Shown here: positions 20,832 through 49,592 of the stretch, in pieces
Layout: each line of letters starts with the position of its first letter
Numbering within the stretch: the stretch's first letter is position 1
Source: Allacma fusca
Lineage: Eukaryota > Arthropoda > Collembola > Symphypleona > Sminthuridae
DNA length: 64,000 nucleotides
Assembly: GCA_947179485.1 (NCBI GenBank)
Contig: OX359247.1
Location: 59,245,131 to 59,309,130, forward strand
Direction: 5' to 3'
Translations under genes and position numbers: made by a program
The notes under the pieces: generated by a model
Databases searched by the model: none
Seen by the model: only the letters and a program-made list of their open reading frames with translations
Told to the model about the DNA's origin: nothing

Positions 20832-20835
20832 ATAT
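20832..20835. repeat. Target-site duplication ATAT (left)
   Basis: ATAT directly precedes the left LTR and is matched by ATAT at 49593-49596 after the right LTR. A 4-bp duplication fits Ty3/gypsy-type integration. Confidence 0.8.
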
Positions 20836-20849
20836 TGTTACGGATATAT

Positions 20850-20858
20850 TATAAATAG
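20850..20858 (+). promoter_or_regulatory. LTR TATA box
   Basis: TATAAATAG lies 14 bp inside the LTR. If used, transcription would start very close to the 5' end, giving a short U3. The start site itself cannot be fixed from sequence. Confidence 0.5.
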
Positions 20859-21242
20859 AGTAGAATAAGCATAATCTAAGTCAGCAAATAGTTTAGAAGG
20901 TCGTAAGCAGAGGCTACGTGAGACCAAACGCTGACCTAACATAATCATAAGTAAAGGAAAGGAAATGATTCAGATTATTTAATAAACAATAAACTAAGAA
21001 TAGGATAAGATTAGATTTAGATTAAGACACGTAGATTAAGTACAAGTTCTAATCTCGACTTCAAGCAAGCAACATCAAGAGGAGCAACACCTAGAGTCCA
21101 TTCCCTCCGGGATGGATCTCTACAGGTGGCAAGCGGGGCGACATGAAATCGGGAGATTTCATGAGAAGAAGAGATTCAGACTTCAAATTCTATTTGTGTT
21201 AAATGTTAATTGTTCAGTGTAAATTTGTATCAGTTTAAGAAC

Positions 21243-21268
21243 AATAAATTGGCCCAAAGTTAAATAAA
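21243..21268 (+). terminator. LTR poly(A) signals
   Basis: Two AATAAA hexamers (21243-21248 and 21263-21268) lie in the second half of the LTR; the same pair is in the right LTR, where it would end the genomic RNA. Another AATAAA lies upstream near 20.98 kb. Confidence 0.5.
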
Positions 21269-21452
21269 AGAACTACACACAGAATTCAATAGTTCCATTT
21301 ATTCATGCGTTTCCAACAACATCGGATTCCAGGAATTCAGGGGATGGAACACCCGAACCTAGGCTACATTGTCTATTACCCACACAACATCAATACCCGG
21401 GTAATACAAGCGTAACATGATGTTTCTGCCAGGCCTTCGGGTTTTTTTTTTG

Positions 21453-21458
21453 GTAAGG
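21453..21458 (+). promoter_or_regulatory. Candidate 5' splice donor in the leader
   Basis: After a T-tract, TTG|GTAAGG matches the donor consensus 36 nt past the LTR. A donor here could feed spliced mRNAs for the downstream ORFs, three of which have AG acceptor-like sequences directly before their ATG. No transcript evidence is available. Confidence 0.35.
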
Positions 21459-22097
21459 ACCCGGAGGATCCGTAGGTCGGGGACCTGCGGATGACCCTGT
21501 GACAAAAGACCGAACTTTGTAGCAAGTAAGGTCGTTAGTCAAATAAAATTCATGAGATGGAAGTATGGGGCTCGATAAGGAGATGAAGTTTCATCATTCT
21601 CCAGGGCCACCCGAAACTTCTCGTGAAAGGCAGTCATAACATGCGACAATGTTACCTCAAGAAAGAAAATTTGGCCATTATCATCACGCGCGGATTAAAC
21701 AACAATTCAGAAATCCTAGTGCCTCACTAGAAAAAGAACTATTTTTGTGGCCACGAATACTATTTTAAGTGCTAGTGAAATTGGGACTCTTTCCAACCGG
21801 AAAATTAGGGGAAGAGGACGTCCAATAAGGTAATACTATTTTCTTTAAGGTTCATGAATTTCATGTTTAGGAGCATACTAATTTTGTCAGGTAGTTACGA
21901 GGCGTAACTAATATTCAGGAGTAATTAACCAGAGTTTAGATACAAATCATATGTTTAAATTAGAAAATTGCGCATATATGTATATGTATTTTGTGGTTTT
22001 CAGAGTACATAGCAGGAGTATGTGCATAACAAATTTTCACCAAAATTAGCTTCTTCCAGTAACATAAGTCTTCTTCTATCTTTTTAAACGCCTTAAG

Positions 22098-23113
22098 TGC
22101 CGTTGTGAGCGGAGGCATAAACAGTGTTCGTATTGTAAAGAGAACTATTCCGGCTGAAGGGCCGACGTTAATTGAGCGCAGTATAATAGTAATCTTTCTC
22201 TTCGTAAGTTTTAAGTTCCAAATTTCAAAAGGGCCGTTTTTGAGCGTTGAAATTCTTTTAACTCTTCAAATTACTTTTCAAAGTTTTGGGAAACCCCAGG
22301 CTAGGGGATAGGAACCCAAAACACAATTAAAATCTTTCATTAAATTAGGACATTTTTTTTTATTAACACAAGACTCTCAGAATTTACTTTCCAAGCTTAG
22401 TTTAAAGCAACAATATGATCTATCTTTCATTAAACAACTCAAAAATAATTTTTCATTCTCTTCTTTCTCTACATCTTTTCTCCTTCTAGTATAAGTACAT
22501 TTGAAGGGCCGTCATTGAGCGCAAATATCTTTAGATTCTTTATCTCCAAATTACGTAATTAAGAGCCCCATGGCTAGGTGGCAAAACCCAATTAAAACTC
22601 TTTCGCTGAAAATTACTTTCTTTACCTGATGTGTAGGTTTACACGGGTAACAATAGGATCTATTATAAACTTTTCACAAACATCTTTTCTTCTTCCATCT
22701 TTCCATTTCTACCAGAAATGCCGTTTTGTGCGCTGGGTAATTAGGACATAATTTGTCATGATTTTGGCAAATATTAGGACTTTAAAGTTAATCCGGAAGG
22801 CCGAACGTGAGCACGGAGCATATCAGATTTCAGTTAGTCATTTTGCAAATCAAAACCTATATAGCTCAGTTAGAGAGCATAGGTAGATCAGACCATCTAA
22901 AGATTATAGTATGTAAGGTGAACAAAATTTGTTCGGAAGGGCCGATTATGAGCGCCGAGGTGATTAGGACAGTTTAATTAATGTTTGAACAAAATTTAGT
23001 CCAAAGGGCCGAGGTATATTGAGCATGGACACATTGGCATAGTACATAAGCATACATATAAGAAAATTCTCATCTACGTAGTTTAGGGATTGAAGGGCCG
23101 AGTTATGAGCGCA
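22098..23113 (+). repeat. Array of nine GGGCCG-N(3-9)-TGAGCGC motifs
   Basis: Degenerate copies at about 22098, 22156, 22228, 22503, 22716, 22795, 22936, 23003 and 23092. The best copies read GAAGGGCCG, a short variable spacer, then TGAGCGC. The flanks differ between copies, so this is an array of short sites and not a tandem duplication. A diverged inverted copy lies in the 3' region near 48,230. Gypsy of Drosophila carries a comparable array (Su(Hw) insulator sites) in its 5' UTR; whether this array binds a protein is unknown. Confidence 0.7.
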
Positions 23114-23914
23114 ATCATTGTTGTGTATAGGTTTTAGTATACGTAGAATCCGAGAGGCTAGGAAGATTAGGAGGGACCTTATGGTTTAGTAGGGTTCGAG
23201 TCATTCCAAGCACGGAGGTGATCGGATGGAGTGCCGACAAAAGTACCGATAAGCCTGTGACCTACTAGAGGTAATCGGAGAGGCTATGATTGACGCACCG
23301 ATATAGGTATATGTTTGTAATGTGCCCGAGCTAGCGGATAGGTAACAGCAATGACTATTACTAGTAAGGAGGTCCATGGTTTAGTGGATAGGATAACAGG
23401 GGACATTCCAAAGCACGGATGTTCACTTTAAAATCTATGTATGCGGTTTCCAGCTATGGCCATACATAGGGACTTTCATATTTATTACTTCTTCCATAGA
23501 TGACTCATGGTTTTGAGTGCATCATAAGGTTAGCCATTCTCGAAGGATTTTGCTAGAGTAGAGAGAATTGGCATAAGAAACCACAGGCTCATGGCTTTTG
23601 AGAGTTGGTTATAGGGATAGGAATTCAGTAAATTCTGGTGCTTTCAGTTTTTGCTGTCTACAACAGATACAAGCCTTGCTGATGGTAGGATCGGTTCAAG
23701 GAAGTTCTTAGGTACGAATTAGGACGCGAAACATATCCTTTGGGACAGAAGGGTAATTAGTAGCGAGGAATACAGTCCTTATTAATTCTGGGAATCATTA
23801 CAGGAGTATTTAGGGAATTTAGGCAACACCGGCCCGAATGTGAGGAGTGTTGATTGACAATAAGACTGCTAAATTAAGGAGTTAGACGCAACTAGCCATT
23901 GCAAATAAGTAAGT

Positions 23915-24260
23915 CTAAGAGGGTTAAGTTTTAAGGTGAGTAAGTTTAAGAGCTTTAAGTTTTAAGGAGGATAAGATTAAGGAGACTAAGTTTAGAGAAG
24001 GTTAAGTTTTAAAAGGACACTAAGTTTTAAGGGGAATAGGTTTTACGGAGTTTAAGTTTAAAGAAAGTAAGTTTACGCCAATTTAGGTTTAAAAAGACTA
24101 AGTTTAAAAACAGTTAGGTTTTAAGGAAGGATTAAGCTTTAAGGGGATTAAGATTAGAAAGTTTAGGTTTTAAGGAGATTCAGGTGGTAACACCAGGAGG
24201 TACTCATTGGAAACATTAGGATTACAGAGATTAAGTTTAAGACGATTCACAGCTAAGGTT
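23915..24260 (+). repeat. Degenerate GGAGNTTAAGTTTTAA repeat region
   Basis: About 15 imperfect copies of a 15-20-bp unit around TTAAGTTTTAAGGAG, mostly A/G/T with very few cytosines. The strong strand asymmetry may keep this leader RNA unstructured just before the Gag start. Confidence 0.65.
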
Positions 24261-24556
24261 AGGGACGTTCAGGGTTTGAACACTTAGGTTATAAGCACAG
24301 AAAATTTCTTTTCCAAGTGGTCAGCACCAATTGGCACAATTAAGTTTTAAAACTAGAATTAAAATAGCATAGGCATACAAGGCAAAATTTTAGGAAACGG
24401 TTTAAGTTGAAATTTGGCATAAGTTTTAAGAAGGTTTTCAGGATTGGAATTGACAAACGAACTCTCACAACCGTCAAACAAATTCATAAAACCAAACTCT
24501 ACGAAACGCCTTAGCATTTTTCAGCCCATCAAGAAAAAGTTAGGACGTTTACAGGT

Positions 24557-27500
24557 ATGGAACCCGAAAAGAACCAACATCCATCAAGAAGGGAACCACC
24601 ACCTGCACCTTCAATACCATCTCGAAGGACTACGCGATCGGCAGGACCAGTGCCACAGAATGAAACAGGCTTGGAGGAAATCCTCGCCCGCAGGAAAGAG
24701 GAGAGGAAAGCAGCGAAAGCCAAAGCTAATACAGCAACGGCAGGTGTAGACCTCTCTTCAACGTCTTCAGCTTCGACATCTACAGTCATGGAAGAATCCG
24801 GCAGTACAACCCTGGCATTATCTGCACAAAGTCCATCGGGCTCGCAGGCCATGGGGCACGGAGATAATCCTGACAATAATGATGAAAGCATGGATGTGTT
24901 CTTGGACACGGTGTCAACACCTGTAACAGGTACGGCAACCAGTCCTAAACGAACACCAACAGTATCGACAGCACAAACACCAAAATTTTCAAAAACAAAG
25001 GTAGTGCAAGGACAGAATCTCCATAGACTAGCCATGCAACGAGAATTGCGCGACCTCGAGGTAACCAACCTGGAGGGCCAACAGGTCCAACAAGCCCAGG
25101 AGGTTGAGGCCACAGGCGAATTCATGCTAAATGCTAGAGGAGACATGGTTTTTGTCAGTCACGATGCTGACCCCACGATAAAGGAAATCCTGTCGCAATT
25201 CAATCAACCTGAGGAAAGACCAACTAGTAGCGCTGCCATGTCATCATTTGAAATTCTCACGGATCCCGGAAGCAACCATACAAGCGTAGGGGAAGGCGAG
25301 CAAGGATTCGCAACTCCAGAAAGTGAGATGGAAGACGTGACCAATGAATCACCCAACAATGTGGTTGTCAGCAACCTGATAAACCCAGTTGGCAACGGAG
25401 ACATTCCTAAAGACACGAGCATACAATCCCAACAGGATGTACAAAGTCAAGGAATGTGCAGCAAAGCTACTGGACAAACAGAACAACAGGTTAATCAGCA
25501 AAGCTCAACGGAATTGGATGAGTTGGAGGATTCCAATAGACCAATTGCTATAGCAACAAGTACACCAGAGATTATCCAGCCAGGAAATCTCAGTACGCAC
25601 TCATCATTTAGGGACAATTTAGCAATAACTCAATCGGACGAGTCAACTGAACAGAGCGAACAAGGTGACTCACCAACAGGATTGCCACGTACTAATAACA
25701 GTATAGGGAGTGATCGTGACCAGGTCACTACTCAATTAAATCAGCAGTTATCAAATTTAAGCATCAGTGACCACCGTAAGGCTTCACAGTCGAATACTAC
25801 AGTTCCTCAACAACCAGACATACAACAACTTGTACGAGACAGGTTTCTATCAAGACCATCTCCAGGATTTTCCAATAGAGGAGACGTAGGCTTTCAGAGG
25901 ACACTCAGCCGGGTGTCTGAGTCTACAGAACAGGAAGGCCCAGTCGAGGATCAGTTACCACCGATCAGAGAAGGGCAAGATAACATCCAAAGAGTGGAGG
26001 AAAATTTCGTACAATTAGTGACAGGTACAGGTGTGATAGTACCAGCAGGTTCGTTTCAACAATTAGTGACCACCGCAGGCTTCCAACGGAACTCAGTGGA
26101 AAATTTTCTGGTAGTTCGAGGATTGGAAGGACAACTGATAGAGGTGTATCACAGGTTAGCTCAAAATCTTTATACAGGTACAGTCCAGTGGACACATTTT
26201 TTCCTTAGATTAGCTGAAGTCACCCACAGACGGGACAACAACAGAGATCCGAATAGGGAAGAAAGAGAAGTGTTACGTACACGTGCCTTCGAGTACGGTC
26301 GGAACGTCAGGGACAACATTTTCATCCCCACAGACGTCATCCGAAACCTTTTAGAGCACCGGGTATTGTCGTTGAGAAGTCACCAGGCACACCAGGATAG
26401 CCAGATTTTCTTCAACGATACACCTAGGTACACAACCGTGATACAATCCGGAAGACTTAGCGAAAATCTAGAATTTGGTCAACCACGACAAGAAAAACGA
26501 GTCAGCGACGAGAGTAGGCCAGGTCCAGAACAAGACTCAAATAACAACGGGACCACCCAACAAAGTGTAATCGACTCCAGTGCTGACGACATCATTAGCA
26601 GGTACCTTAGGTACGAACAACGAAACCCACCAGTAACACGGAATCCGGTTACGGGTTTATTAGAACCAGCATCTAGATCTACGCTAAGGACCATCTCAGG
26701 CGAACCTACAGTACAACCCGTTACGTCACGAAGAATTTCACCCGAAAGCTTGAATACCAGCTCAAGCTCAATCAACAAGGCTATAGCCCAGGCAATAGCC
26801 TCAGCGACACTTCAAGCAGGTTTAACAACCCCTCGAAATCGGAAGTCGAGTAACTCCGATCGGGACCATCTCAGACCAAGTAACCAGGTGACGGACAGTA
26901 ACCAGGTAGATTACTCATCACCTAGGTCACAACTTTTCCAGAAATCGGTGAGAAGCCATTACAGGGTAAATAGTGCTGGGGAAAACAGCAACTTAAATCC
27001 CAGAACCAGTCCACAAGGGATTACGACACGTGAGAGACCAAGCAACAGCCGTTGCGAGACAGCCATACAGAGGGGTAGCCCAAGAGCACCCACTACATCA
27101 CCCACAGTCCAGACAGGTAATCAGACGCCAACAGGGAGCTCTACGGCACAACCGAGAGTGACCCCGAGGTCCAGTAATTCCTGTCGCTCAACACCCGCAA
27201 CAGGTGACAGAGGACAGTCAAGCCGACACAGCAACTCTCACGAGACAACACAGCCGATTAACCCAGTACACATCTCACCAACCAGTCAAAACAGACAGGT
27301 TTCAACGGAAAATACGCCGAGAAATCGACCAACTCAACCTAACCTGCAATTTAGACCTCAACCCACCCAAGACGATTTGGAGACACCAACTGAGGAGGTC
27401 GAGGCCACCCAAATTGGTAGTACATCACAGGCTACCGTTAAGAGGGATTTAACAACAACAAAGTTGTACGTCAACACCGATTCCATCCAGGCCAACAATA

Positions 27501-30500
27501 ACGACCAACTGGTACACCGAGTTTACCAGTCACCGGGAGGTCGAATCTACGTACATCCACCCGTGCACGCGTTGCGAGCACCGCCACTTGACGTTAGTGA
27601 AACAGCTTTAAGAACATTGGTGCAAGTAGGGAGACAACTACGGGAACAGAATCCGTCATTGACTATTGCAAATACCATCAGAAATTCTGACACAGGTACT
27701 TACTATCAGGCATTTAGACCCCAAGATAGATTTACCGTCTATCAATCACCGAGAGGCTCGTTATATAACAGCCTACAGATAGGACGCACAGGTATACACC
27801 GCCACAGTTTACGAGGTCGAGACATCCTGCAACGAGCAACCAACAACGACAGGACCATCATAGAAGGTGGAGAGCTTGTAACAGCACCACAACCATCACC
27901 TTCAGAACAAACATCTAGAAGCAACGAGTCGTACGTCCAAGGTGACACCTTAAGGTCACGGACAGCAACACCCGCATCTACGACACGTGCAGCAACGACT
28001 TTTGCAGTACCAGCTAGACCAACCGGAAGGTTCATAACCAGGTCAGCAAACCGACCAACGACACCGACAGCTCCAGCTGTCCCCGTCAGACCAAATTCAG
28101 CAGTAGCGGGACCATCTCGAGTAACAATAACTCCAACCACAAGTCAAGGTAAAGTCAGTTGGCTTGACGACTTACAATACGGAGTTAACATTTGGACAGG
28201 ACCAAGTGGCAGAGTATACACCAGCGAGAACGAAGCAACCGAAGACGAGTTAGTACCAAGCAGGATAACAGCAAGACAATACTCTAAGATCGCGCGACAA
28301 CAAGACAGATTCAGAAACCAGGGGGTAGAAAACGAAGCAACGTGGACAGGTCAAGTGAGACGCCTGATCTACTATAACAGAAGGGACGGAATCATACAAC
28401 GAAGGTTTAGACCAGCTAGAGACTCAAACTTTGAAGCATTTGCAGCTACAAGAGCTGAACATGAGGAAATTGTTCTGAGTGAACACCCGATATTTACCTT
28501 CTGGAACATAATCACCCGAAGATCTTTAGATCCAGGACAGATCTCCAGCTACATCGCACCTAATTTCAGACTTTATCATAGACACATCAGTCTACCGAAC
28601 GGCGTTCGCAGACAAAGGGTACCGCCAGGCTTCTTGGAAAACATCGAGAACGAACACGACCACCAAGAGGCATTAAATAGATTAATTCAAGATCCTAACG
28701 TAGAAATCTTGAGTGACACGTCCAGCGAGGAAGAAGAAGAGCAGGTAATACAGAGAGACACTCCGAGACGTGAGAGTGGTCAGCATAACAGTGCACAGTC
28801 TAGTGAAGAGACAGACCACATTTTTATTGGAGTTGACGAAGAGGACTTCATTATTCCAGAAGTACCAGGTCAATTTACCATAAGAATTTCAATAGACGAC
28901 GCCTACGACGCAGCGTTCAGGGCAATAGAAAGAGACGAAGAAATACAAGAGGAAGTCCGATTTGTGGATAATACCGGAGAAACCCACTTCTTCCCAAGAA
29001 TCCGACTGCGAGACCTTAGCCCGGAAACTCAAGTTGTACTCACTCAAGTCAGAAAGAGACGTAAACCCTTACGAGCACGCCGTCAAATTGGAAATAACCG
29101 ACCCAGACCACCAGGCCCAGGACCAAGTGGGTCCGGGAGAGGAAACCAGTCACGAGGAGCTAATAACAATAACTCCCACAATCAGCGACCATCTCAACAA
29201 AGGTCAAATCCAGGTCGAGGAGGCTCAAGAGGAGGTAGACACATTGGAGGCAGACAGAGAGCAAGGAGTGACCCCGGGAGTTCCGGAGGAAGTAGCTCAT
29301 CATCCAGCTCCAGTAGTAGCAACTCAAGTAACCCTCACGACTTCGAGGCCTTCGACAACTGGAGGAATAGGCAGATTGTGAACAGAAATAATTTCTTCAA
29401 CCAGGTCAACGTTAACATCATCAACCCATACGTACCACTCAATCGCAATCAGGGAATACGTATTGAGGAAGTTGCAGACCAAGAACAAGTACGAATAATT
29501 CCAAGGAGACATCTGGACGACGACATGACCGCCCTCATGTTTCCCAAAGTAGAATTCAAACCGGGTGTAGATGACCCAGAGACAGCTTTCGCAACAGCCG
29601 AACTCCAAACCAACAGGTTTGGAGGAGATACCATCATAACTAGGATGCAATATGTACAGATCATCTTTGACCCACCCGTCAGGGATTGGATCAGAAATTG
29701 GATTGCCGAACGAAGACTACATGAGGAACAACCTTACGACACCATTAACTGGGACGAATTCAGGGAGGAATTTTTAATAAGGTACAGTATCACCGACCAA
29801 ATGATACGTACACTAATGGAAAAGCGAAAGATGAATACGGATGAAGATCCATGCGCATACATAGATGCGAAATTAGCACTAATCAATAGAGTCGACAGAT
29901 TTATGCCCGAACTGGAGAAAATCAGACTCTTACGCGCAGGTTTAACATCCGAATACATAGTTTTCTGCCGAGGATGGACAGCAGGGACGGTAGCAGATTT
30001 CATAGAGGGAATCAAGCAGTATGATGAAGACCGAAAGACGGACGGCGCGGAATCTATTGAGACAAGATTTGCCAAAGTCCAAGAAATGTTGGAGAAATTA
30101 ACCTCCGGAATGAAACCCGTTCCAGCGGAAACAACTGTAGTGAAAATAGCTGCAGTGAGAGAACAACAGGACTATCGGAGACCTGAGAATAGACCTAATG
30201 ACCAACGGGGACGAAGTCCAGGTCAGGGAAACTTCAACAACTCACGGAATTCCAGCCCAGGTTACAGTAACAATAACAACTACCCGGACAGGGGACGTAA
30301 CAACCAAGGGTATGATGACCGAAGAAATTATGGGAACCGAGGTAGATCTCCAACACCTGAGAGATTCTACAATAATCAAGACAGGAGTAGGCCTCAGTAC
30401 AGAAATGATGGCAACAGCTCCAACAACCAAGGTTACCCGCAGCGGAACCAAAATTTCGGACCCAGACAAAGTCCGAACCGACAATACTACAACAACAACC

Positions 30501-31123: not shown

Positions 31124-31143
31124 CTGAAGATATCCAAGAAAGA

Positions 31144-38673: not shown

Positions 38674-41600
38674 AGTGGAAATACCACAAGCGAAAATTCT
38701 ACCAAACTCAGATACGGGACGACTGGAAGTTGTTCTCAGAGTTGACGGGAAGTTACCCCACAGGATTATCATCCAAGGACGAGATGGACGAGAAATCGTA
38801 ACTCATTCAGTACTCATCGGAGCTCTCAGAAAGCCTAGAGAGTTAACACTAGATTATCGTATATTACGACGAGAACCGCACTTTTGCGGGTCAATAAATT
38901 TTCCGGAGCAGCAGGTGGAAGTAGATAGAGGCGAGCGAGCGCCAGATGATCTTGTTTACCTTTTTAAAGGACAAGAATTTAATCCCACTCCCATACGACG
39001 ACAGATCCCCATCTGTAGAACACGTAATAGACAGCCAGATGATCCATGGCTAGTCCAAAATTACAGGCAAGAAAAGGATGTGCCCGGACAAAAGAATCCA
39101 AGGGGAGATTATGAATATGACCCCTGGGCATTTACTCCAAGCCTTCAGTACGAACGAGGCAAGACAAGTCGAAGCTCATCTCGGAAAGTGATGGGAGCCG
39201 ACCCTATTTGTGGAGTTACCCGGGTCAACATCCCCGAAATCAGTGAATGGTTACCGCAACATGAAGAACAGGTCGAGGACGTAGCCCATAGAATCAGTAG
39301 ACGTATTGACGACAACTATGGACCCGATCTGAGACGAGGGAACTTGGAGGACCGACGAAGGGAACCTCCGAGATTCGCAGCCTACTCGGCACATATGGTA
39401 CCAGCCGGGAGAGGCCGCGGGCGGGCCATCACTACGGGAGAAAGTTCGAGCAGGCATCATAGAAGCTCAAGAGAAAGTTCGAGGGAAAGACACAGCTCTA
39501 AGGACAGCAGGACCAGGAAGCGGGAGACAGAGTCGTCATCGGAAAGGAAGAAGCGACGGGAGGACGACAGGTCAAGGAGTCGCTATGACAGTCCAGCGCG
39601 GTCAAGGAGCAGGAGAGAGTCAACCCCACCACCTTCACCATTTCTATCACCAGCAGCGAAAGATTATAAGGATCGAATGGAGAGGGAGTCAATACTGACA
39701 ACACCCATAGCAGCTCCAGCTTTAAGTTACACAGCGGTCACAAAGATGCCACCGCCAACAATACCGGTTAATACTGAACCACCTAAACCACAGCGTGCAG
39801 TTTGCATCGCTCAAAAAGAGAGACCAGTGGAAGTACCTGTAGTGACTCCACCATCAGTGGCTGTGACATTATGGAGCGAGGAAACTGCCACGGACACAGC
39901 TACAACAGCGGACAGAGATACCGCCAATGAATCTTCTTCAGACTCAGAAGAGGAAGAGACAGTACCCATCCAAACCTGTAGTAGGAAAGGATGTAAAAGG
40001 GTACGACAAGTAATTGCAACCGACAGTGGACCAGTGGTACAACAGGAATGTGAACATCATGCAAAGAAACGTGCAAAGAAGGAGAAGAAGGTCAAGAAGG
40101 AGGCTCAGATGACTATCTTAGAGCTATTTGGACAGAACACAGCACCAACCCAACCACCGGCGAAATGGCAGTCGAACATCCTAAAAATCGGAGAAGACTC
40201 CAGGAAAGCAGGGAAGCACGAGGAGATGGTAAACCGAATAAAAGATCTCGGGGAAATCATCCGCAACCTTGCCAGACAAAATGTCAACGCAGACAGTGCG
40301 AAAAAGCAAAAGGAAGAATTAATGAAAGAATTAGCACGCCACCGCCAGGAATGGATAAAGTGGAGAAATGATAACGACTTTCACTTGGTATGTGCTGAGT
40401 CAAAGATAGACCTTCAAACCAGAGAATTACCTCCAGCACACTTTGAACCAACGAACATTCCAACGTCAACAGCCACATCCGGAGAGCTAGAGCGTTTGCT
40501 CGCTCAGGAAAAACGAAATGGTCCAGAAACGGCAAGCTCAACAGGAATGGCAACGGAAATGCCACCTTCACCAGCACAAAACGTCGAAGTTGCAACATCT
40601 GAGCTATCTATAGCCGAACAACACAACGACCAGAGCAGTAGCTCAGAGGATTTTGAGGTGATCAGATCAAAGAGAAGACCTAAAGATCGAGAATCATCAA
40701 TAACTTCGGATACAACGGAAATTGTTAATCACCACCAGCTTTCATTGGCTGATTTTGCCAACTCACCCCAGGACGGAACCGTCATCCTCAGTGACGACGA
40801 GGAACCAAGACAGTCAACCTCATCAATTCAAACGCCACCTCACACGCCGGAGATGGGACGTGGAGGAGGAGGAAGACGAGGAGGACCCATACCTTACCTC
40901 GGTAACAGTTGGTTATCATTTTTATTAATGTTCGGTTTAATTACATCTGCTGTAGGACAATCCAACTTGAAAAAGGAATTGACGGGACACTACGGACCAT
41001 ATCCAACAACCCGGGCATCACATTACCAGTGGTGGACCCGATTGGAAACCGAGAATCTAACCAGTCCAAGAGGCTTTGACCATGTCAGCCTAGACTTTGA
41101 AAATAAGGAAGACTCAGAGGAAATCGGACACTATGACCCTTACGACAAACGGGAATGCCCACCGGTCGGAAATTCAGCCGTACGGTACCAAGGTTTCGGC
41201 TCAGCCACAGCGCACCGACTCTGGCAGAATGGAGTAGTACGAGGAGTAGCAGGAGCCGTAGGCATGTGTACCACGGGAATGGTCATAGTAGGAGTCTACA
41301 CCAGCTCAATCCTAGACGCAGTCAGGAGATGGAATAAACCACTCAAAACAGTCAAAATACCGCAGGATTGGGTACTCATTGAGTCCCAACTACCAGACCA
41401 ACGACCCATCTGGATGATAATGCCCGTCAACGCCAGTGAGGAAAAAGAATTAGAAGATTTTCTTAAAAAAGATCCAACAGCAACAGAAATATCTCCGAAT
41501 TTAATAGCATTACCAGGTGATATCCAAAGGAATGCTCATTACCTCAACGAAACTTCTGTAGCCAAAGTATGGAATCAAGCTTTAGGCAAGGAAGTGGAAG

Positions 41601-44600
41601 AGGAAGAATCCGAAAACGGGAGAGTGCGACGACATGCTCCTGAACCCACCTCGGAGGAAGAGGAACGAAGACAGAAAATTCGAGACCAACGGAAATTACC
41701 GCAAGCTATTTGGTTAATGTCACAAGCAATACGTGACGGTTACCATCTAACGACCAGAACTTTACAGTCAGTCGCAATGGACTTAATAACAAAACCAATC
41801 CAGCTACCACTACAAACCAAATACGAAATTTGGAAGGAATATGAAATACAATACGGGAAATTCATTGACAAAGTCATCCAAATTTTGGGACTCAAAACCA
41901 TACATAAACGCACCAGGCGGAGTATCTTGGCAAAAGACCAGATAAATAACCTCCAACGCCAGATGCAAAACAACCCTCACAGTATCACAAAAGGGGAAGA
42001 CTATGTTCACCCCACCGAGGAAATTGCAATAGGTGAAGTTGTACACTTCGCACTAGCAACGACAATCACAGAAGCAAACTGGACGATAGTTTTGCTCATA
42101 CCACACGTATACAACGGAGTTGACCATCTCGAAGAAGAAGAACTCAAGGGATGGGAGACAAAGGCACACGCCAACGTCTCACAAACCCACCCACTCTTCC
42201 AGCGAACGTCGGAACGAGCAGCCAGAGAACGGCAGAGGCGAGATGCATTCGTAGGACCGACCAACGCATGGTCACCCGTCAGTTATAGCAAACAATTCTT
42301 AAAACAACAGCTACAGCTTATGCTGGCACGAATCGAGGAAGAGGAGGCTCACTCATCGTCAGGAAGACCTACAGGGATTATTCAACAGCTTGTACGATTT
42401 ACCCTCAGAATGGTAATCTATATTGGCACGTCCGTCGGAATGGACTTCGGAGGGAACCAAGATCCAATACGGAAGAGTGACCCCGGAAGAAGCCACCCAC
42501 GAAGGACAGAGGGAGCAGAAGGACCGGTTTTGGCCTCAGAAGAGGAACCGGCTGTGCCAACGGAACAAGCTATGGAAGCTCAAGAAGAAGGAGCCGGAAC
42601 ATCATTGAACGTAATCAAGGAAGAAGTCTTAGACGACGAGGAAAAGCCACCATTGGAACATCAGGTAGATAGTTCGTCAGACAATGAGACAGACAGTAAG
42701 TGGGTGCAGACCAGATGCGAATACTGCCCACTCAAACATGGCCATAAGCCACCCGTACGACCAAAGACCAAGTTAGCAGCACATGAAGCTTGGCAAAGAC
42801 AAAAGGACATTCCGGTACAATACATCCGAAGGAGTAGACCCGAGTTGGACAGGTTGTATGGAAGAGACAACGCTCCAAACTGTACATTCCAGTATAGAGG
42901 ACGACGACGAGGTCCAGAGCCAGAAATTGAACGACCCAGGGTTAGAGTATACTCACCCATTAGGACTGTAATATTTAACGATACAAGGGACAGACGAGGA
43001 TCAAGGTCACCGTCACCCGGACCATCCACGATAACGGGACAACCTATACCACCCATTGAAGACAAACTGAAGTCCAGACGAGCTAGACAACGTCAACGAA
43101 AGGTGGAGTTCAAGGAAGAACGCCAGGAAAACCCACCAGCTCCAGCACCGGAAGACCCACTGGCACAACCCGACTCACCTGATGTAAGATTCGTTGATTT
43201 AGCTCACGTATCATTTTACATAGGAGTCCGTGGATGGATGGTAGCACCAAGTTGGGAAGATGAGGATGCGGAAATAGTCATCTTTACCAACCCAAACAAG
43301 ACACAGTTATACAGCCAACTGGATCCGGTACGACTTCAAGTGAAAAAGATGGTGGAAAGGGCCAATGACCCATTGGACCACTCACCACCGCCAAGATTCC
43401 CGGACCAAGTGATGGAAGATATATCCGGAGACGAACGCCACAGCCAGATAGAAGCGCAGTACTCCAGGAGAACGAACTACTTCAGCAACAACATAGACAC
43501 CAGGGAAAGATCCACCATGTGTCCTCATTGTTACCAGAAATCTACCATCGACCCAGAGAGATTTCCAACATATAATATCTCACACCGGTCAACCAACAGT
43601 CCAGAGCAAAATCTAGTGAGATGGCTCAACAGAATGTACAGGGAGACATTTATCGAGAGACTTGACATCCACCAACAACCCACCCAACCACCTCAACTAC
43701 GACTCGAGCAGTTACGAAGGGCGCTTAGCACTTTAAGCGAACCTAGAACAGATGCTCACGAATCAAATATAGAATACGCCGAACACCAGGCAGGAATAGA
43801 CTACAACAATCACGGAGAATTAATCCGGGAAAGAAGGGCATTGTTGTATGATGCAATGGACCATCCCACAGATTATCGCAGACTAGACCCAAGGGAGCGA
43901 GACCTGCTCATCCTATACGGGCAAAGTCGAAGAAACGTACCAATGGAAAACACCCGTCTGGAAACGATGGCAGGAGACATGAACATCTCACCAGGGGAAA
44001 TGATACCGAGACTTTGGACAACACTGTTCAATGGTCAAAGAGGTATTGACAATCACCAAGTACCAACATACCTAACATGTCGGGAACATCAAGGAGTAAT
44101 GCAAGGGCTCACGGGAACCGAGCTACGCAGATTGATTACTCAGATGTGGTTTGACATAGGAACTCAGCCAACCTGGCGAGAGCAAGAAATATGGATAAAT
44201 AGTTTCCTACTGAGAGGAGACGCCATCACCGGACGTGGAGAGAAAGCTCTACAACAACTAGCAAGTATACCAATACACATGCTAAGTTTTCAAGAATTTG
44301 CGAGTATGACCGAAAGGCTCATAACTCTTTATCATCAGGACGAGGCAATTCAGGAGTGGCGACAATTTGGAGCAATGAACCAAAGCGGCAGAAGTCAACC
44401 CAATCCAATAGACGACATAGAAGAAGAACTAGGACAATGGGAAGACTGGATATTCGCAATGAAACTAGCAGGGGAAGGCCAAAAGCCAACTACCCTATAC
44501 GCTAGAAAACTAAAAGGAGGAGTAGCCACCCTAAGACAACCCCGGAGAACAGGTTCTTTCAGAGACCTAAACGAACTTGTCACGATACGAATCTGGCAAA

Positions 44601-45109
44601 GAGAACATTTTCACAGGATTCGGGAGCAAATTAGCAACCGTGGAGACGGACCAAGTTACAAACCATATCATTTATCACCAAGAAATGAAAGACGACCAGG
44701 AATAACACCAATACATATGGTACCAAGCGCTATAGATCGATTCCAAACACCCCAATGGCGATCAATTGTCATTGATGGAAGACCAGATGAACCCGACATA
44801 ATAAATCTCATACGAACCCTCAGAGGTCGAACAAGAATCGAAATAGTTTTTCGAGACCTTGGACATGATTTTATTCAGGAAGAACTCAGGAGAGACCCAG
44901 TGACACAACAAAGAACCAGCTATCTTTCCATAACAAACCCTGTGGAGCATAGAAGGCTAATGGATCAGTTATGGGAAAGATCAGAACGGGCAAGATGGGA
45001 CCCGGAAATATTATCCGAGAATAGATTCGCAGTTATATCATTCAGAACACTAGCGGAAGGAGAGGAGGAGACAGGCACCCTCAGAGGGCCGTCCGAGGAA
45101 GACGATTAG
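38540..45109 (+). CDS. ORF3, giant accessory polyprotein with internal membrane-glycoprotein-like region (2,189 aa)
   Basis: No family recognised. Residues about 295-375 are an RS-rich basic region (RERHSSKDSRTRKRETESSS). Around 485-525 is a Cys/His pair cluster with a Lys-rich stretch. A hydrophobic segment at about 790-808 (WLSFLLMFGLITSAVGQS) looks like an internal signal peptide or TM anchor. It is followed by Asn-glycosylation motifs (NLT, NAS, NET, NWT, NVS), a glycine-rich hydrophobic stretch (about 896-920) and three furin-type sites: RVRR (1028-1031), RTRR (1124-1127 region) and RQRR (1231-1234). This part is envelope-like in layout. After a weak second hydrophobic stretch the last 900 residues are soluble-looking, with C-x2-C motifs and a helix-rich domain at about 1710-1990. 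The ATG directly follows TTTTATCTTCAACCAG, a good splice acceptor. A single 6.6-kb frame joining nuclear-type and envelope-type parts is unusual. Confidence 0.85.
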   Translation: MSENRGSRASGSRTNETPRQDALPAVDRDDDDRPRYWTQYVSQTEVEIPQAKILPNSDTGRLEVVLRVDGKLPHRIIIQGRDGREIVTHSVLIGALRKPRELTLDYRILRREPHFCGSINFPEQQVEVDRGERAPDDLVYLFKGQEFNPTPIRRQIPICRTRNRQPDDPWLVQNYRQEKDVPGQKNPRGDYEYDPWAFTPSLQYERGKTSRSSSRKVMGADPICGVTRVNIPEISEWLPQHEEQVEDVAHRISRRIDDNYGPDLRRGNLEDRRREPPRFAAYSAHMVPAGRGRGRAITTGESSSRHHRSSRESSRERHSSKDSRTRKRETESSSERKKRREDDRSRSRYDSPARSRSRRESTPPPSPFLSPAAKDYKDRMERESILTTPIAAPALSYTAVTKMPPPTIPVNTEPPKPQRAVCIAQKERPVEVPVVTPPSVAVTLWSEETATDTATTADRDTANESSSDSEEEETVPIQTCSRKGCKRVRQVIATDSGPVVQQECEHHAKKRAKKEKKVKKEAQMTILELFGQNTAPTQPPAKWQSNILKIGEDSRKAGKHEEMVNRIKDLGEIIRNLARQNVNADSAKKQKEELMKELARHRQEWIKWRNDNDFHLVCAESKIDLQTRELPPAHFEPTNIPTSTATSGELERLLAQEKRNGPETASSTGMATEMPPSPAQNVEVATSELSIAEQHNDQSSSSEDFEVIRSKRRPKDRESSITSDTTEIVNHHQLSLADFANSPQDGTVILSDDEEPRQSTSSIQTPPHTPEMGRGGGGRRGGPIPYLGNSWLSFLLMFGLITSAVGQSNLKKELTGHYGPYPTTRASHYQWWTRLETENLTSPRGFDHVSLDFENKEDSEEIGHYDPYDKRECPPVGNSAVRYQGFGSATAHRLWQNGVVRGVAGAVGMCTTGMVIVGVYTSSILDAVRRWNKPLKTVKIPQDWVLIESQLPDQRPIWMIMPVNASEEKELEDFLKKDPTATEISPNLIALPGDIQRNAHYLNETSVAKVWNQALGKEVEEEESENGRVRRHAPEPTSEEEERRQKIRDQRKLPQAIWLMSQAIRDGYHLTTRTLQSVAMDLITKPIQLPLQTKYEIWKEYEIQYGKFIDKVIQILGLKTIHKRTRRSILAKDQINNLQRQMQNNPHSITKGEDYVHPTEEIAIGEVVHFALATTITEANWTIVLLIPHVYNGVDHLEEEELKGWETKAHANVSQTHPLFQRTSERAARERQRRDAFVGPTNAWSPVSYSKQFLKQQLQLMLARIEEEEAHSSSGRPTGIIQQLVRFTLRMVIYIGTSVGMDFGGNQDPIRKSDPGRSHPRRTEGAEGPVLASEEEPAVPTEQAMEAQEEGAGTSLNVIKEEVLDDEEKPPLEHQVDSSSDNETDSKWVQTRCEYCPLKHGHKPPVRPKTKLAAHEAWQRQKDIPVQYIRRSRPELDRLYGRDNAPNCTFQYRGRRRGPEPEIERPRVRVYSPIRTVIFNDTRDRRGSRSPSPGPSTITGQPIPPIEDKLKSRRARQRQRKVEFKEERQENPPAPAPEDPLAQPDSPDVRFVDLAHVSFYIGVRGWMVAPSWEDEDAEIVIFTNPNKTQLYSQLDPVRLQVKKMVERANDPLDHSPPPRFPDQVMEDISGDERHSQIEAQYSRRTNYFSNNIDTRERSTMCPHCYQKSTIDPERFPTYNISHRSTNSPEQNLVRWLNRMYRETFIERLDIHQQPTQPPQLRLEQLRRALSTLSEPRTDAHESNIEYAEHQAGIDYNNHGELIRERRALLYDAMDHPTDYRRLDPRERDLLILYGQSRRNVPMENTRLETMAGDMNISPGEMIPRLWTTLFNGQRGIDNHQVPTYLTCREHQGVMQGLTGTELRRLITQMWFDIGTQPTWREQEIWINSFLLRGDAITGRGEKALQQLASIPIHMLSFQEFASMTERLITLYHQDEAIQEWRQFGAMNQSGRSQPNPIDDIEEELGQWEDWIFAMKLAGEGQKPTTLYARKLKGGVATLRQPRRTGSFRDLNELVTIRIWQREHFHRIREQISNRGDGPSYKPYHLSPRNERRPGITPIHMVPSAIDRFQTPQWRSIVIDGRPDEPDIINLIRTLRGRTRIEIVFRDLGHDFIQEELRRDPVTQQRTSYLSITNPVEHRRLMDQLWERSERARWDPEILSENRFAVISFRTLAEGEEETGTLRGPSEEDD

Positions 45110-45673: not shown

Positions 45674-46420
45674 ATGGAATACAAGTGGTATATTCTTTTG
45701 AGCCTTGCAATAACCCTAATTGCAATGGACGTTTCCGAAACCAGGCCGATAGCACAACCAAGTCCAGAACCATGGGGAGGACCACTGATGGCAGCCCTAG
45801 GAACTCAAGTCGGAAAATGGTTCGCAAATTACATGGTACCAGCCATAACCGTCGGAAGCGGAGCTATCACAGCATCAGTACTATCACAAAAGGACCCAAT
45901 AGTACACATACTACACCACAAGGATGACGGGAAACTAGCCATAGTACAGTATGACCCGAACGACCCAAACGTGGAAGCACAGAGAATCATGGAGAGAAAC
46001 CAACAAATGGCTCTACTACAACCCCAACAACAACTTATACAACCCCAATTCATACAAAACCAACAGCCCACGATGCTGAGGGATAGCAGACCACCATGGA
46101 TGGAACAATTCAACGAAATAGATTGGAAATCCAATGAGGTTCCAACATCAGACACGGATTACACCGTAGTCATTATTAGTTCATTCGGTTGTATTACCAC
46201 AGTAGTGATATTTATATTCACAGTAATACTGTACCGAATTCGAATGCAGAAAAGAAAATCAGATCAACAAACACCGAATGAGAGAGAATTAGACAATGTT
46301 GCAAGCACGCAGGCATTAGTCCAAAATTCTATAGAGCAGTTAGTCGGATGCAAAATTGTGAGGCCCAATACACAACAACAAGCCAGCCGACACACAACCA
46401 GAGCAACCGTACAACTATAA
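45674..46420 (+). CDS. ORF4, small type I membrane protein, envelope-like position (248 aa)
   Basis: Residues 1-19 are a signal peptide (WYILLSLAITLIAM core). The ectodomain has a hydrophobic, glycine/alanine-rich stretch at about 38-70 and a Gln-rich region at 105-133. Residues 163-187 are a TM helix followed by the stop-transfer RIRMQKRK and a 60-residue tail. The ectodomain has no cysteine and no Asn-glycosylation motif, unlike usual retroviral or errantivirus envelope proteins. It sits where env lies in errantiviruses, after Pol and before the 3' LTR. The role is unknown; a membrane or assembly partner of ORF3 is one possibility. Confidence 0.75.
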   Translation: MEYKWYILLSLAITLIAMDVSETRPIAQPSPEPWGGPLMAALGTQVGKWFANYMVPAITVGSGAITASVLSQKDPIVHILHHKDDGKLAIVQYDPNDPNVEAQRIMERNQQMALLQPQQQLIQPQFIQNQQPTMLRDSRPPWMEQFNEIDWKSNEVPTSDTDYTVVIISSFGCITTVVIFIFTVILYRIRMQKRKSDQQTPNERELDNVASTQALVQNSIEQLVGCKIVRPNTQQQASRHTTRATVQL

Positions 46421-49000
46421 CACCGACTCAACCGAGAAGGAAACAACGCAAGAAAGAAAATAAAGAAGAAAAATACGCAAAACCATAAAAATTGTATGGA
46501 AAAATATTTTAAAAATATTTATTAGTTATAAGATAGTATTAGCAAAATAATAGGATAAGTAGTTATAAGTAGAATAAGGTTAGGAAGAGAAAAGACAGAA
46601 AACCAAGTTCATATACAACAAAAATATAAAAACGCAATGAAAATAACAAAAGTTCAAATAACGAACGAGAAGTTCAATTTAGTTAAAGAGGCAGATCCCC
46701 AATAGGAGTAAAAGGAGAACAGTCTAAAGAATATGTGATTCAAATCAAAATATCTTTCGTGTCTCGATGGATTCATTATCCATTTTCTTTCCAATTTCCT
46801 TTTCACCCCATTGATTCCAGTGATTAAAATTTTATTGAATAGCAACACTATCAAGTCAGGCTATGTTTTGAAAACAAAGATTTATTTGTTAACGAGACGA
46901 AATTGTTTCAAGATAAGGTTCAGTTCTAACAAAAATTTTAGGCAATATCATAATTCCTTGAGGCTTGTTTACTCAACAGCCAATGAGTGATGATTGTAAT
47001 GCCTTGTGACTTATTAGGTCATTTAACTCCATATGAGAAGGATAAAATTAAATTTCTAACCTACTCATCGCTTGGGATGAGCGGGATACCAAAATTTCCA
47101 GCAAAAATCAGAACCCTGTATAAGCAAGTTCTCTACGATCAGGATCAGTTTACCTTTTAGCTTCAGTTTAACAAAATCTATTTAGCTAGACGTGCTAATA
47201 TTTTAGGTACCTAGAAAACAGATTAAGTAAAACGAAAGTCCGAAGGATAGATTCTTTCAAAAGAATTTCTGTAACACAGGTTTGTTTACAAAATTATTTA
47301 CTTGCAAAGTGTTTCGCATTTCAAATGATAGTTAGAAAATAATTTTGTCAAAAATTATTGACATGAATGTGCCCCGATCAGAAGGATCCTAATGTCGTTT
47401 GAGAGCAAGGACCTTCACCTATTCCAAGGGCCTACATGAATGATCTAGGGACCAGAAGAATAAACAAAAATATACCACGAATAGGTAGGAGGAACTTTAA
47501 ATAAAAATATAAAAAGTAAGAAAATTACAGTAATGGATATATTTGATTGTTAGTTGTAAACCAGTCCAATGTGAATCGAGAGGTGCAAGAGGCAACGAGA
47601 ATCACATTGCAAACAGTGTTGACATCTTTTTACAATTTTGAGTTAAAAGTCTAAGACGGAAGATATCTGTGCGAATACACATCATAGATGACAAAAGGTT
47701 TACGGAATCATTAAATTCACTTCGTTTATCCAATAAAAAGGATCAGTTTTAAATCTTAAAAGATCAAATGTCTTATTAGCTTTGATAAATTCCATAGTTT
47801 CCCAAGACAAAAATTATATTAAGAAAACACAATTCTGAAGGGAATTTTAAACAGAAAATTTAACTTACAAATTTGACACATTTCATCAAATAAGATTTTT
47901 TACAGATCAAGGTATATATATATATATTTATGATTATCGCCAAATTACATTCCGATCTCAGTTGAGGAAATAGCTCACGGTACAATATGATTTTATGCCT
48001 TATGGAGTAGTAAGAACCACTTACAGAACTTCATGGAGCACGATGTTTTCACATTTGGTGAAATTGCCAACAGTTGTGCATGAGAAGGACATAATTCCTA
48101 ATTTAACCACCGAAAAACAACTCAAATATTTCACAGGCGAAAATAAAAAGATTCTTCAAACTTTCTGTAGAGACCTCAGGAGGTTTCAGAGTCGGTTTTT
48201 CAAATAATTGTGTTTAAGAGCGACACTACTGCGCTCAAGACCGTCACTTCAAACCGTTAATAGTGATATTGGATAATCACACATTTCCCCACAACGATTT
48301 GTCTGTGACATGTTAAATTGTTTCACAAGGAAACTCACGGGATTTTACAAGCTTAATAATTAAATACACCTTTAACAATACATTAGGCCACTACCCTAGT
48401 AATAACAGTAATTGACAGTAGTCACAATGTTTCAACAACTAGTATTCAATATCAGAGAAAATTAGAAATCAAAATGAGAATAGAAACAAGAGTCAATAGT
48501 TTCATATCTGCCTTCAAGTAATCTTTGCTGATCTTTCCTTATATGTTTGGAGAGCAGTCAAGACAGTTTTACAAACAAATTCTTTTCAAAACATGTGTAC
48601 AAAATTTTCAATTCTGCTACGATGTTTCTAATCTTAGATACGATAAATAACATTAGAAATCAAGCCAAATAACGATATATTCCATGTAAATAGTGTATAT
48701 GTAAATGATGAAAGGATGAAAATGGTTGATTATCAGACGTAAGTATACAAACAGTAACACCATCAAATATTGTACAGCATTACAAAAGTATACACACATA
48801 TGATGATGAACATGTATGATCAATTGTATAAAATGCCTTAACAACTTATACCCATGAATACCATTACGACCTTGCTACAAAGTCAATATAACGACCAACA
48901 TATAGCTACAAAGTAAGGTAACATAAATAACATTAGTATAATTACAAATAATATGAACTTGAACTTCGACAGATGAAATTGTCGAGGTCGACAATTACCC
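46421..49000 (+). other. 2.6-kb retrotransposon 3' region
   Basis: AT-rich, with mostly short frames. Holds a (TA)n-like run near 47.92 kb, one possible small ORF at 47995-48207 and one inverted, diverged copy of the leader motif near 48.23 kb. No env-like or RNase H-like remnant is seen. Confidence 0.6.
47995..48207 (+). CDS. Small ORF in the 3' region (70 aa), uncertain
   Basis: ATG to TAA, with an ordinary amino-acid mix (SHLVKLPTVVHEKDIIPNL) that reads better than random AT-rich frames. No family recognised. It may be an accessory protein, a remnant or chance. Confidence 0.25.
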   Translation: MPYGVVRTTYRTSWSTMFSHLVKLPTVVHEKDIIPNLTTEKQLKYFTGENKKILQTFCRDLRRFQSRFFK

Positions 49001-49010
49001 AGAAGAGGAA
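49001..49010 (+). promoter_or_regulatory. Polypurine tract (plus-strand primer)
   Basis: AGAAGAGGAA directly abuts the TGTTACGG start of the right LTR, the expected position and composition for the plus-strand primer of reverse transcription. Confidence 0.85.
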
Positions 49011-49592
49011 TGTTACGGATATATTATAAATAGAGTAGAATAAGCATAATCTAAGTCAGCAAATAGTTTAGAAGGTCGTAAGCAGAGGCTACGTGAGACC
49101 AAACGCTGACCTAACATAATCATAAGTAAAGGAAAGGAAATGATTCAGATTATTTAATAAACAATAAACTAAGAATAGGATAAGATTAGATTTAGATTAA
49201 GACACGTAGATTAAGTACAAGTTCTAATCTCGACTTCAAGCAAGCAACATCAAGAGGAGCAACACCTAGAGTCCATTCCCTCCGGGATGGATCTCTACAG
49301 GTGGCAAGCGGGGCGACATGAAATCGGGAGATTTCATGAGAAGAAGAGATTCAGACTTCAAATTCTATTTGTGTTAAATGTTAATTGTTCAGTGTAAATT
49401 TGTATCAGTTTAAGAACAATAAATTGGCCCAAAGTTAAATAAAAGAACTACACACAGAATTCAATAGTTCCATTTATTCATGCGTTTCCAACAACATCGG
49501 ATTCCAGGAATTCAGGGGATGGAACACCCGAACCTAGGCTACATTGTCTATTACCCACACAACATCAATACCCGGGTAATACAAGCGTAACA
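49011..49592 (+). repeat. Right LTR
   Basis: 582 bp, same ends and no visible difference from the left LTR; followed by the ATAT duplication at 49593-49596. The host sequence resumes in the spacer past the receptor stop codon. Confidence 0.98.

What the first reader, a model, noticed from the sequence alone, without database searches (positions are those of the whole stretch)
20836..49592. An intact 28.8-kb LTR retrotransposon with four very large ORFs
Seen: 582-bp LTRs with no visible difference, ATAT duplication, PPT, complete catalytic motifs, and uninterrupted frames of 2188, 2398, 2189 and 248 codons. Known: Ty3/gypsy elements are mostly 5-10 kb, with a few giants (Ogre, Burro). Inference: a giant, recently mobile lineage with about 15 kb of coding sequence beyond standard gag-pol, which I cannot match to a named clade.
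Basis: partly seen in the sequence, partly recalled or inferred. Interest (0 to 1): 0.92.

Follow-up and report, generated by a model that had tools for sequence, protein, structure and literature searches.

The report
Giant young springtail LTR retrotransposon family
A springtail genome carries many nearly full copies of a 28-kilobase retrovirus-like jumping element with four long genes, two of them without a recognised relative in our searches, and the copies examined look very recently inserted and shaped by natural selection.

Summary
Confirmed and extended. Window 20836-49592 is one complete 28,757-bp Ty3/gypsy-type LTR element: identical 582-bp LTRs, ATAT duplication, PPT, frames of 2188, 2398, 2189 and 248 codons. 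The 27.6-kb interior shows no sign of being composite. The host assembly is Allacma fusca, a globular springtail: COX1 match, and contig length equal to the published N50 scaffold. 229 LTR starts lie in the 393-Mb genome; the 100 listed give 47 pairs, median spacing 28.2 kb. In 19 of 19 element pairs checked the two LTRs are identical, although elements differ from each other. Among best-scoring copies ORF1 is open in 22 of 22, ORF2 in 20 of 20, ORF3 in 21 of 22. dN/dS is 0.09-0.17 for ORF1, ORF3 and ORF4. New here: a -1 frameshift signal, ATAT targeting, a fast-changing but open Pol tail, and mosaic copies suggesting template switching. ORF3 has no relative in the libraries searched; ORF4 looks like a single-pass membrane protein. 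Most likely a giant, very recently active retrovirus-like element with roughly 16 kb of extra, mostly selected coding. Functions of ORF3 and ORF4 are inference.

The parts
20836..21417 (+). 5' LTR, 582 bp; TATAAA at 20850; AATAAA at 20981, 20988, 21243 and 21263
20832..20835 (.). target-site duplication ATAT, left
21418..21435 (+). candidate primer-binding site TGATGTTTCTGCCAGGCC (18 of 20 5'-LTR loci; TGG form in the other 2)
   Evidence: primer tRNA not confirmed
21418..24556 (+). 3.1-kb leader with 40 ATGs; best donor consensus AAG|GTGAGT at 23933
24557..31123 (+). ORF1, Gag, 2188 aa: about 1,650-aa N-terminal extension, capsid-like region, CCHC knuckle
   Evidence: selection
29711..29947 (+). 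weak Retrotrans_gag match (below Pfam cut-off), inside the most conserved part of ORF1
31013..31063 (+). CCHC zinc knuckle
31090..31118 (+). predicted -1 frameshift signal: G_GGA_AAC, 7-nt spacer, hairpin GGGGG-ACGCA-CCCCC
   Evidence: heptamer and hairpin unchanged in the 5 copies read, the window's included
31144..38340 (+). ORF2, Pol, 2398 aa: PR, RT, RNase H, about 600-aa linker, integrase, about 620-aa tail
31243..31539 (+). aspartic protease
32290..32772 (+). reverse transcriptase (YLDD at 32617)
32989..33372 (+). RNase H
35401..36444 (+). integrase: H2C2 finger, D,D35E core (rve just under its Pfam cut-off), p58-type C-terminal domain
37042..38337 (+). fast-changing Pol tail (aa 1967-2398), open in the 21 copies compared
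38524..38539 (+). acceptor-like TTTTATCTTCAACCAG directly before the ORF3 ATG
38540..45109 (+). ORF3, 2189 aa, no Pfam, PDB or sequence relative found; under purifying selection
39377..39664 (+). ORF3 arginine/serine-rich stretch (45% R+S, aa 280-375)
40898..41290 (+). ORF3 stretch holding two hydrophobic segments (aa 787-805 and 899-917)
45674..46420 (+). ORF4, 248 aa: signal-peptide-like N terminus, one predicted transmembrane segment (aa 167-185), basic patch
46421..49010 (+). 2.6-kb 3' region without a long ORF, ending in the PPT
49011..49592 (+). 3' LTR, identical to the 5' LTR
49593..49596 (.). target-site duplication ATAT, right

Best explanation
A multicopy, very recently active family of giant Ty3/gypsy LTR retrotransposons (retrovirus-like) in Allacma fusca. 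SHOWN by sequence: single complete unit, young copies, selected frames, ATAT target preference, mosaic copies. INFERRED: an LTR-to-LTR RNA of about 28 kb is packaged. Gag comes from ORF1 and Gag-Pol by -1 slippage on G_GGA_AAC just before the gag stop. ORF3, and perhaps ORF4 and Gag, come from spliced RNAs that skip the 3.1-kb leader. Reverse transcription of mixed genomes switches templates, and a D,D35E integrase inserts the DNA at ATAT. ORF3 most likely is a polyprotein whose R/S-rich, basic N-terminal part acts on RNA in the nucleus (for example export of the unspliced genome) and whose hydrophobic middle works at membranes. ORF4 most likely is a type I membrane protein for budding or cell-to-cell transfer.
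For: LTRs, TSD, PPT and ORFs. Domains. 229 LTR starts, reversed control 0; 47 pairs among the 100 listed, median 28.2 kb. Open frames in scored copies: ORF1 22/22, ORF2 20/20, ORF3 21/22. dN/dS: ORF3 0.094 over 20 copies; ORF1 0.125 over 5; ORF4 0.17 over 16; RT-RH 0.013 and IN 0.036 for one pair. Verified element LTR pairs identical, 19 of 19. TSD ATAT in 16 of those 19. Frameshift: in-frame heptamers expected in the overlap 0.048; hairpin window ranks 44 of 4581; unchanged in the 5 copies read. LD decay in 20 ORF3 copies: r2 0.205 below 100 bp, 0.072 above 500 bp; 0 of 500 permutations as extreme.
Against: No RNA or protein data, so activity is inferred. Copies were scored best-first (first looks: ORF1 1503, ORF2 3574, ORF3 637 candidates), so young intact copies are over-represented. 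Spacer distance (0.032 and 0.037) is well below dS (about 0.10), so dS may be inflated; against the spacers ORF3 would be about 0.26 and ORF1 about 0.37 (my arithmetic). The Pol tail is near-neutral by dN/dS (0.79). The primer tRNA was not confirmed. One of 19 elements lacks a TSD. The ORF1 and ORF4 acceptors are unremarkable (fraction of YAGs at least as good: 0.51 and 0.31). GGGAAAC also occurs once elsewhere in ORF1 in frame, at 30226. ORF3 fold predictions failed. The middle of ORF3 has few cysteines for a classical envelope. Of 22 ORF4 loci, one has a 144-codon frame and one lacks the usual start.
Confidence: 0.87

Rival explanations
1. Still-transmissible giant retrovirus: the copies are germline integrations of an agent that moves between cells or animals with envelope functions in ORF3 and ORF4.
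For: Env-like position after pol, acceptor-like site before ORF3, hydrophobic segments and basic cleavage-like motifs in ORF3, signal-peptide-like N terminus and TM in ORF4, identical LTRs with diverged lineages.
Against: No envelope family in Pfam for ORF3 or ORF4 and no PDB relative of ORF3 (ORF4 was not searched there); no relatives in IMG/VR by peptide pattern; few cysteines; ORF4 has no N-glycosylation sites.
Confidence: 0.35
2. ORF3 and ORF4 are purely intracellular accessory proteins (RNA export, silencing escape, capsid assembly), as the Cer1 CERV protein is for RNA export.
For: R/S-rich and basic stretches under strong constraint (dN/dS 0.048 and 0.024); a 28-kb unspliced RNA would need export; precedent in the Cer1 CERV abstract (PMC10309623).
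Against: Hydrophobic segments in ORF3 and the signal-peptide-like N terminus plus TM in ORF4 point to membranes.
Confidence: 0.4
3. Composite or assembly artefact: several elements fused, or a 28-kb unit made by the assembler.
For: Ultra-low-input HiFi library (PCR step recalled) and 744 contigs (PMC10427803 passages); mosaic copies.
Against: No internal LTRs; 36 of 47 listed pairs within 27.9-28.5 kb (one regrouped by eye); distinct flanks with matching TSDs in 18 of 19 elements; 80-fold HiFi coverage.
Confidence: 0.03
4. The extra coding is captured host genes carried as passengers.
For: LTR retrotransposons can capture ORFs (review PMC6431247, passages).
Against: No Pfam match in ORF3; the extra regions are constrained across copies; the 22 scored own-genome matches to ORF3 are full-length and 98-100% identical, as element copies are, though scored best-first.
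Confidence: 0.08

Closest known systems
Burro giant gypsy-like elements of planarians (PMC6431247, passages read)
   Same: Giant Ty3/gypsy LTR element, multicopy, coding far beyond gag-pol, proposed provirus
   Different: Burro interior is given as up to 25 kb, with a 4,873-aa ORF1 polyprotein in which BIR, MATH, ankyrin and (some Burros) BCL2-like motifs are reported, and an in-frame env-like region between gag and pol. Here the interior is 27.6 kb, there are four ORFs, none of those Pfam domains, and the unknown ORF3 follows pol
Ogre elements of plants (same review passages)
   Same: Giant Ty3/gypsy elements
   Different: Ogre size is attributed mostly to 1.9-6.5-kb LTRs with an 11-13-kb interior; here the LTRs are 0.58 kb
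Errantiviruses (gypsy, ZAM, Idefix groups; PMC5408687, listing abstract and passages)
   Same: ATAT-type target preference; an ORF after pol (general anatomy recalled)
   Different: About four times larger than the usual 7-8 kb (recalled); no recognised Env domain; Pol only distantly similar to the homologues found
MDG1-group elements with sORF2 (PMC11952523, abstract and sections 7, 8, 10 read)
   Same: Small single-pass membrane protein with basic patch and Tyr next to the TM segment (ORF4)
   Different: sORF2-like proteins are 63-107 aa, with an ectodomain near 30 aa, searched by an N-myristoylation motif and mostly upstream of gag; ORF4 is 248 aa, lies after ORF3, starts MEYK and has an ectodomain near 150 aa
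Cer1 of C. elegans (PMC10309623, abstract and outline)
   Same: Ty3/gypsy-related element with an extra nuclear protein from a spliced RNA
   Different: CERV is a tested protein; its sequence was not compared here

Membership tests
Ty3/gypsy LTR retrotransposon (Metaviridae) | Paired LTRs with TG...CA ends and a short target-site duplication | tested here: met
Ty3/gypsy LTR retrotransposon (Metaviridae) | Pol order PR-RT-RNase H-IN with Ty3 as nearest solved RT | tested here: met
   rve just under cut-off; 7q5b and 4ol8 best
Ty3/gypsy LTR retrotransposon (Metaviridae) | tRNA primer-binding site next to the 5' LTR | tested here: inconclusive
   conserved 18-mer; 12-nt complement in tRNA-like host sequences that ARAGORN does not call
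Burro | Interior of 20 kb or more with coding beyond gag-pol | tested here: met
   27,593 bp
Burro | BIR, MATH, ankyrin or BCL2-like domains in a single giant gag-pol frame | tested here: not met
   gag and pol are in separate frames
Ogre | LTRs of 1.9-6.5 kb | tested here: not met
   582 bp
Errantivirus | Env ORF related to baculovirus F protein (definition recalled) | tested here: not met
   no Pfam env family in ORF3 or ORF4 at E up to 1
Errantivirus | Specific palindromic target such as ATAT | tested here: met
   16 of 19 verified elements ATAT, 1 ATAC, 1 GTAT, 1 none
sORF2 (FAST-like) membrane protein | 63-107 aa with MGxxxS/T start | tested here: not met
   248 aa, starts MEYK
sORF2 (FAST-like) membrane protein | TM segment followed by Tyr and a basic patch | tested here: met
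   ...VILYRIRMQKRK
Infectious endogenous retrovirus | Particles and transfer between cells | not testable with these tools
   needs microscopy or RNA/protein data

The most novel reading that the evidence does not exclude
A still-circulating, freely recombining giant retrovirus-like agent of springtails with one of the largest coding capacities of any reverse-transcribing element (7,023 aa in four ORFs), carrying a new type of 2,189-aa transmission or RNA-handling polyprotein with no known relative.
Probability: 0.33. Interest if true: 0.87.

Novelty: new variant of a known kind. Interest (0 to 1): 0.74.

Why it matters
Size limits of retrotransposons have traditionally been put around 10 kb, with RNA length, polymerase processivity and particle capacity as reasons (review PMC6431247, passages). 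This family has many young copies near 28 kb with open frames in those scored, and roughly 16 kb of extra coding that is mostly under selection, so those limits become testable in an animal that can be collected. ORF3 is a large selected orphan protein. A 28-kb genome raises direct questions of capsid size, RNA export and reverse transcription.

Tried and rejected
Composite of nested elements: rejected; within the element the self-comparison shows only the LTR pair and a leader tandem repeat.

High dN/dS of the Pol tail: the first values 0.86 and 0.76 included one copy, L016, whose first 250 or so tail codons are unrelated because of an internal deletion. Without it 0.79 over 21 copies. Adaptive evolution is not claimed: the one window far above 1 (3.9) rests on a dS of 0.0057.

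LTR pair 10 (C12:55.19 Mb) was dropped from dating and target counts after I compared flanks: both its LTRs have the same upstream flank and one lacks a PPT, so I read it as a duplicated flank with a solo LTR, not one element. 19 pairs remain of 20; all 20 had identical LTRs and pair 10 also had ATAT.

ORF3 homology: protein search none among 7981 scored candidates (at most 100 words of five residues, lengths 0.55-1.75x), PDB none, Pfam none, IMG/VR none. ORF4, ORF1 and Pol pattern scans of IMG/VR gave no relatives. ORF3 against ORF4 and against ORF1: no significant similarity.

Fold predictions of ORF3 aa 780-1310 and 1640-2189: mean pLDDT 29.7 and 34.0, so no fold search was made. RT tree: nearest-neighbour support 0.29, not used. 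tRNA primer: unresolved.
Full report
WHAT IS THERE. The finding is real at the stated coordinates. Two 582-bp LTRs (20836-21417, 49011-49592) are identical, start TGTTACG, end CGTAACA, and sit between ATAT duplications. The interior is 27,593 bp. ORFs of 2188, 2398, 2189 and 248 codons follow one another on the + strand. ORF1 ends in a weak, below-cut-off Retrotrans_gag match and a CCHC knuckle; ORF2 holds PR, RT, RNase H, an H2C2 finger, an integrase core (32.2 bits, cut-off 32.6) and a p58-type C-terminal domain, with DSGA, YLDD and D,D35E motifs; Ty3 is the best solved relative. ORF3 has no Pfam family and ORF4 only sub-threshold membrane-protein matches. There is no internal LTR.

HOST. 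COX1 from the assembly's 14,936-bp contig C91 matches a Sminthuridae cluster best (93%). The published Allacma fusca assembly qeAllFusc8.1 has a scaffold N50 of 66,084,411 bp and a 14.94-kb mitochondrial genome (PMC10427803, abstract and passages); the window's contig C10 is 66,084,411 bp. So the host is A. fusca. In the main text of that paper and of the one on paternal genome elimination (PMC9630974) a term search finds no word starting 'transpos' or 'repeat'.

FAMILY. The LTR search scored 40 of 287 candidates, which pair into 20. A 28-base LTR start with up to 2 mismatches occurs 229 times, against 0 for the reversed control. Only 100 places were listed, all without mismatch; my script paired 94 of them into 47, median spacing 28,167 bp, 35 within 27.9-28.5 kb; regrouping one triple on C8 by eye makes 36. 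Six places stay single, one of them at the cut end of the list. Of the 20 LTR pairs read, one proved not to be an element (see Tried and rejected). In the other 19 the two LTRs are identical over about 11,050 sites, against 95-97% identity between the window's LTR and the others scored. With zero changes the 95% bound is about 2.7e-4, or about 45,000 generations at an assumed 3e-9 per site per generation (rate recalled; one search gave 43,000 with pair 10 included). Target duplications: ATAT 16, ATAC 1, GTAT 1, none 1 of 19. Two of the 19 are not full-sized or not standard: one is 20 kb long by internal deletion and one lacks the duplication.

SELECTION. Best-scored copies: ORF1 open in 22 of 22, ORF2 20 of 20, ORF3 21 of 22. 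First looks held 1503, 3574 and 637 candidates, so these are the best copies, not a random sample. NG86 dN/dS: ORF3 0.094 over 20 copies (0.092 over 21), 150-codon windows 0.02-0.19; ORF1 0.125 over 5 copies, 0.016-0.032 in codons 1651-1950 and 0.05-0.38 in the N-terminal extension; ORF4 0.17 over the 16 of 22 loci with 248 codons (four others have 243, one 144, one lacks the usual start), with its first 24 codons at 1.07 and its last 58 at 0.53; ORF2 against one copy: PR 0.067, RT-RH 0.013, linker 0.24, IN 0.036, tail 0.36-0.38. Caution: the two spacers differ by only 0.032 and 0.037, far less than dS near 0.10. Either the spacers are constrained or dS is inflated; with spacers as yardstick ORF3 is about 0.26 and ORF1 about 0.37 (my arithmetic), still below 1. 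If stops were tolerated, ORF3 should carry about 17 per copy at half of dS or about 6 at half the spacer distance (my arithmetic); one stop was seen in 22 copies.

POL TAIL. The last 432 codons of ORF2 change fast (dN/dS 0.79 over 21 copies, one deletion copy dropped) yet hold no stop, against about 10.6 expected if stops were tolerated like missense changes. So length and frame matter more than sequence, as for a disordered spacer, or selection on it changes.

EXPRESSION. Gag and pol frames overlap by 46 nt, with pol in the -1 frame. At 31090 lies G_GGA_AAC in gag phase, then 7 nt, then a 5-bp G-C hairpin (-10.1 kcal/mol). ORF1 holds 8 in-frame heptamers of this class in all; 0.048 are expected in the overlap; the hairpin window ranks 44 of 4581. 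Heptamer and hairpin are unchanged in the five copies read, the window's included. The leader has 40 ATGs and one 9-of-9 donor consensus at 23933. The AG right before the ORF3 ATG is in the top 1.6% of 1146 YAGs by pyrimidine count; those before ORF1 and ORF4 are not remarkable. The ORF3 CAG-ATG is kept in 22 of 22 loci.

RECOMBINATION. In 20 ORF3 copies, r2 falls from 0.205 (below 100 bp) to 0.100 and then 0.072, four-gamete violations rise from 30% to 48%, and none of 500 permutations matched the trend. Copies are mosaics. Template switching between co-packaged RNAs is the usual cause in retroelements (established knowledge); gene conversion, or PCR chimeras from the ultra-low-input library (PCR step recalled), are alternatives, the last unlikely at 80-fold coverage.

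ORF3 AND ORF4. ORF3 has a conserved N-terminal 230 aa (dN/dS 0.03), an R/S-rich stretch (45% R+S, 13 RS/SR steps, 0.048), a basic cysteine-containing patch (0.024), two hydrophobic segments around a faster-changing 78 aa (0.25), another faster stretch at 1421-1640 (0.22), several R-X-[KR]-R motifs, and a conserved C-terminal 549 aa (0.058). This fits a polyprotein with a nuclear or RNA part and a membrane part; it is inference. ORF4 has a hydrophobic start, one predicted TM segment and a basic patch. Its Tyr and basic residues after the TM recall the sORF2/FAST-like proteins of MDG1 elements (PMC11952523, sections 7, 8, 10), but length, start and ectodomain do not fit.

NOVELTY. Giant Ty3/gypsy elements are known (Burro, Ogre; PMC6431247 passages). 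This family differs in interior length, ORF plan and lack of shared Pfam domains. I found no description of it in ten library searches (open-access papers only, top rows of the listings seen). Repbase or Dfam were not searchable. Of 109 Pol homologues, 106 align over more than 300 RT-RH residues, at most 38% identical; pseudoscorpion (Cordylochernes) proteins reach about 50% over 131-147 residues. That set was limited by length and shared words and may leave out the host's own records.

VERDICT. A new variant of a known kind: a very young, selected, giant LTR retroelement family with two proteins of unknown kind; strong on structure and evolution, weak on proven function.

Noticed in passing
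G000:C12, C5, C8: Several nearly complete COX1-like stretches with TGA codons lie in long nuclear contigs, so large recent nuclear copies of mitochondrial DNA are likely.
   Followed up: no
G000:C12:55188566-55212571 (L041, L042): Two LTRs share the same upstream flank; one is followed by the element interior, the other looks like a solo LTR. A local duplication or two haplotypes joined in the assembly.
   Followed up: partly
G000:C1:24782567-24817946: Two ORF2 copies with equal scores lie 28,192 bp apart, suggesting a tandem pair that shares an LTR.
   Followed up: no
window 20507-20821 (-): An open frame with a signal-peptide-like start reads away from the insertion; the element may sit just upstream of a host exon.
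   Followed up: no
window 11340-11900 (-): Exon-like stretch of a fatty-acid elongase (ELO) gene, Pfam E 2.8e-15.
   Followed up: no
window 599-1018 (-): Pcf11_helical Pfam match, E 6.8e-14, beside a proline/serine-rich frame at the window's start.
   Followed up: no
G000:C10:56064422-56066142 (L070, L071): A cluster of four tRNA-like sequences; the one read has an odd anticodon arm and ARAGORN calls neither of the two fetched; 12 nt match the complement of the post-LTR segment.
   Followed up: partly
window 23908-24180: Degenerate 16/31-bp tandem repeat in the leader holds the best splice-donor match.
   Followed up: partly
window 54184-54834: Tandem repeats of 74 and 152 bp in the right flank.
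   Followed up: no
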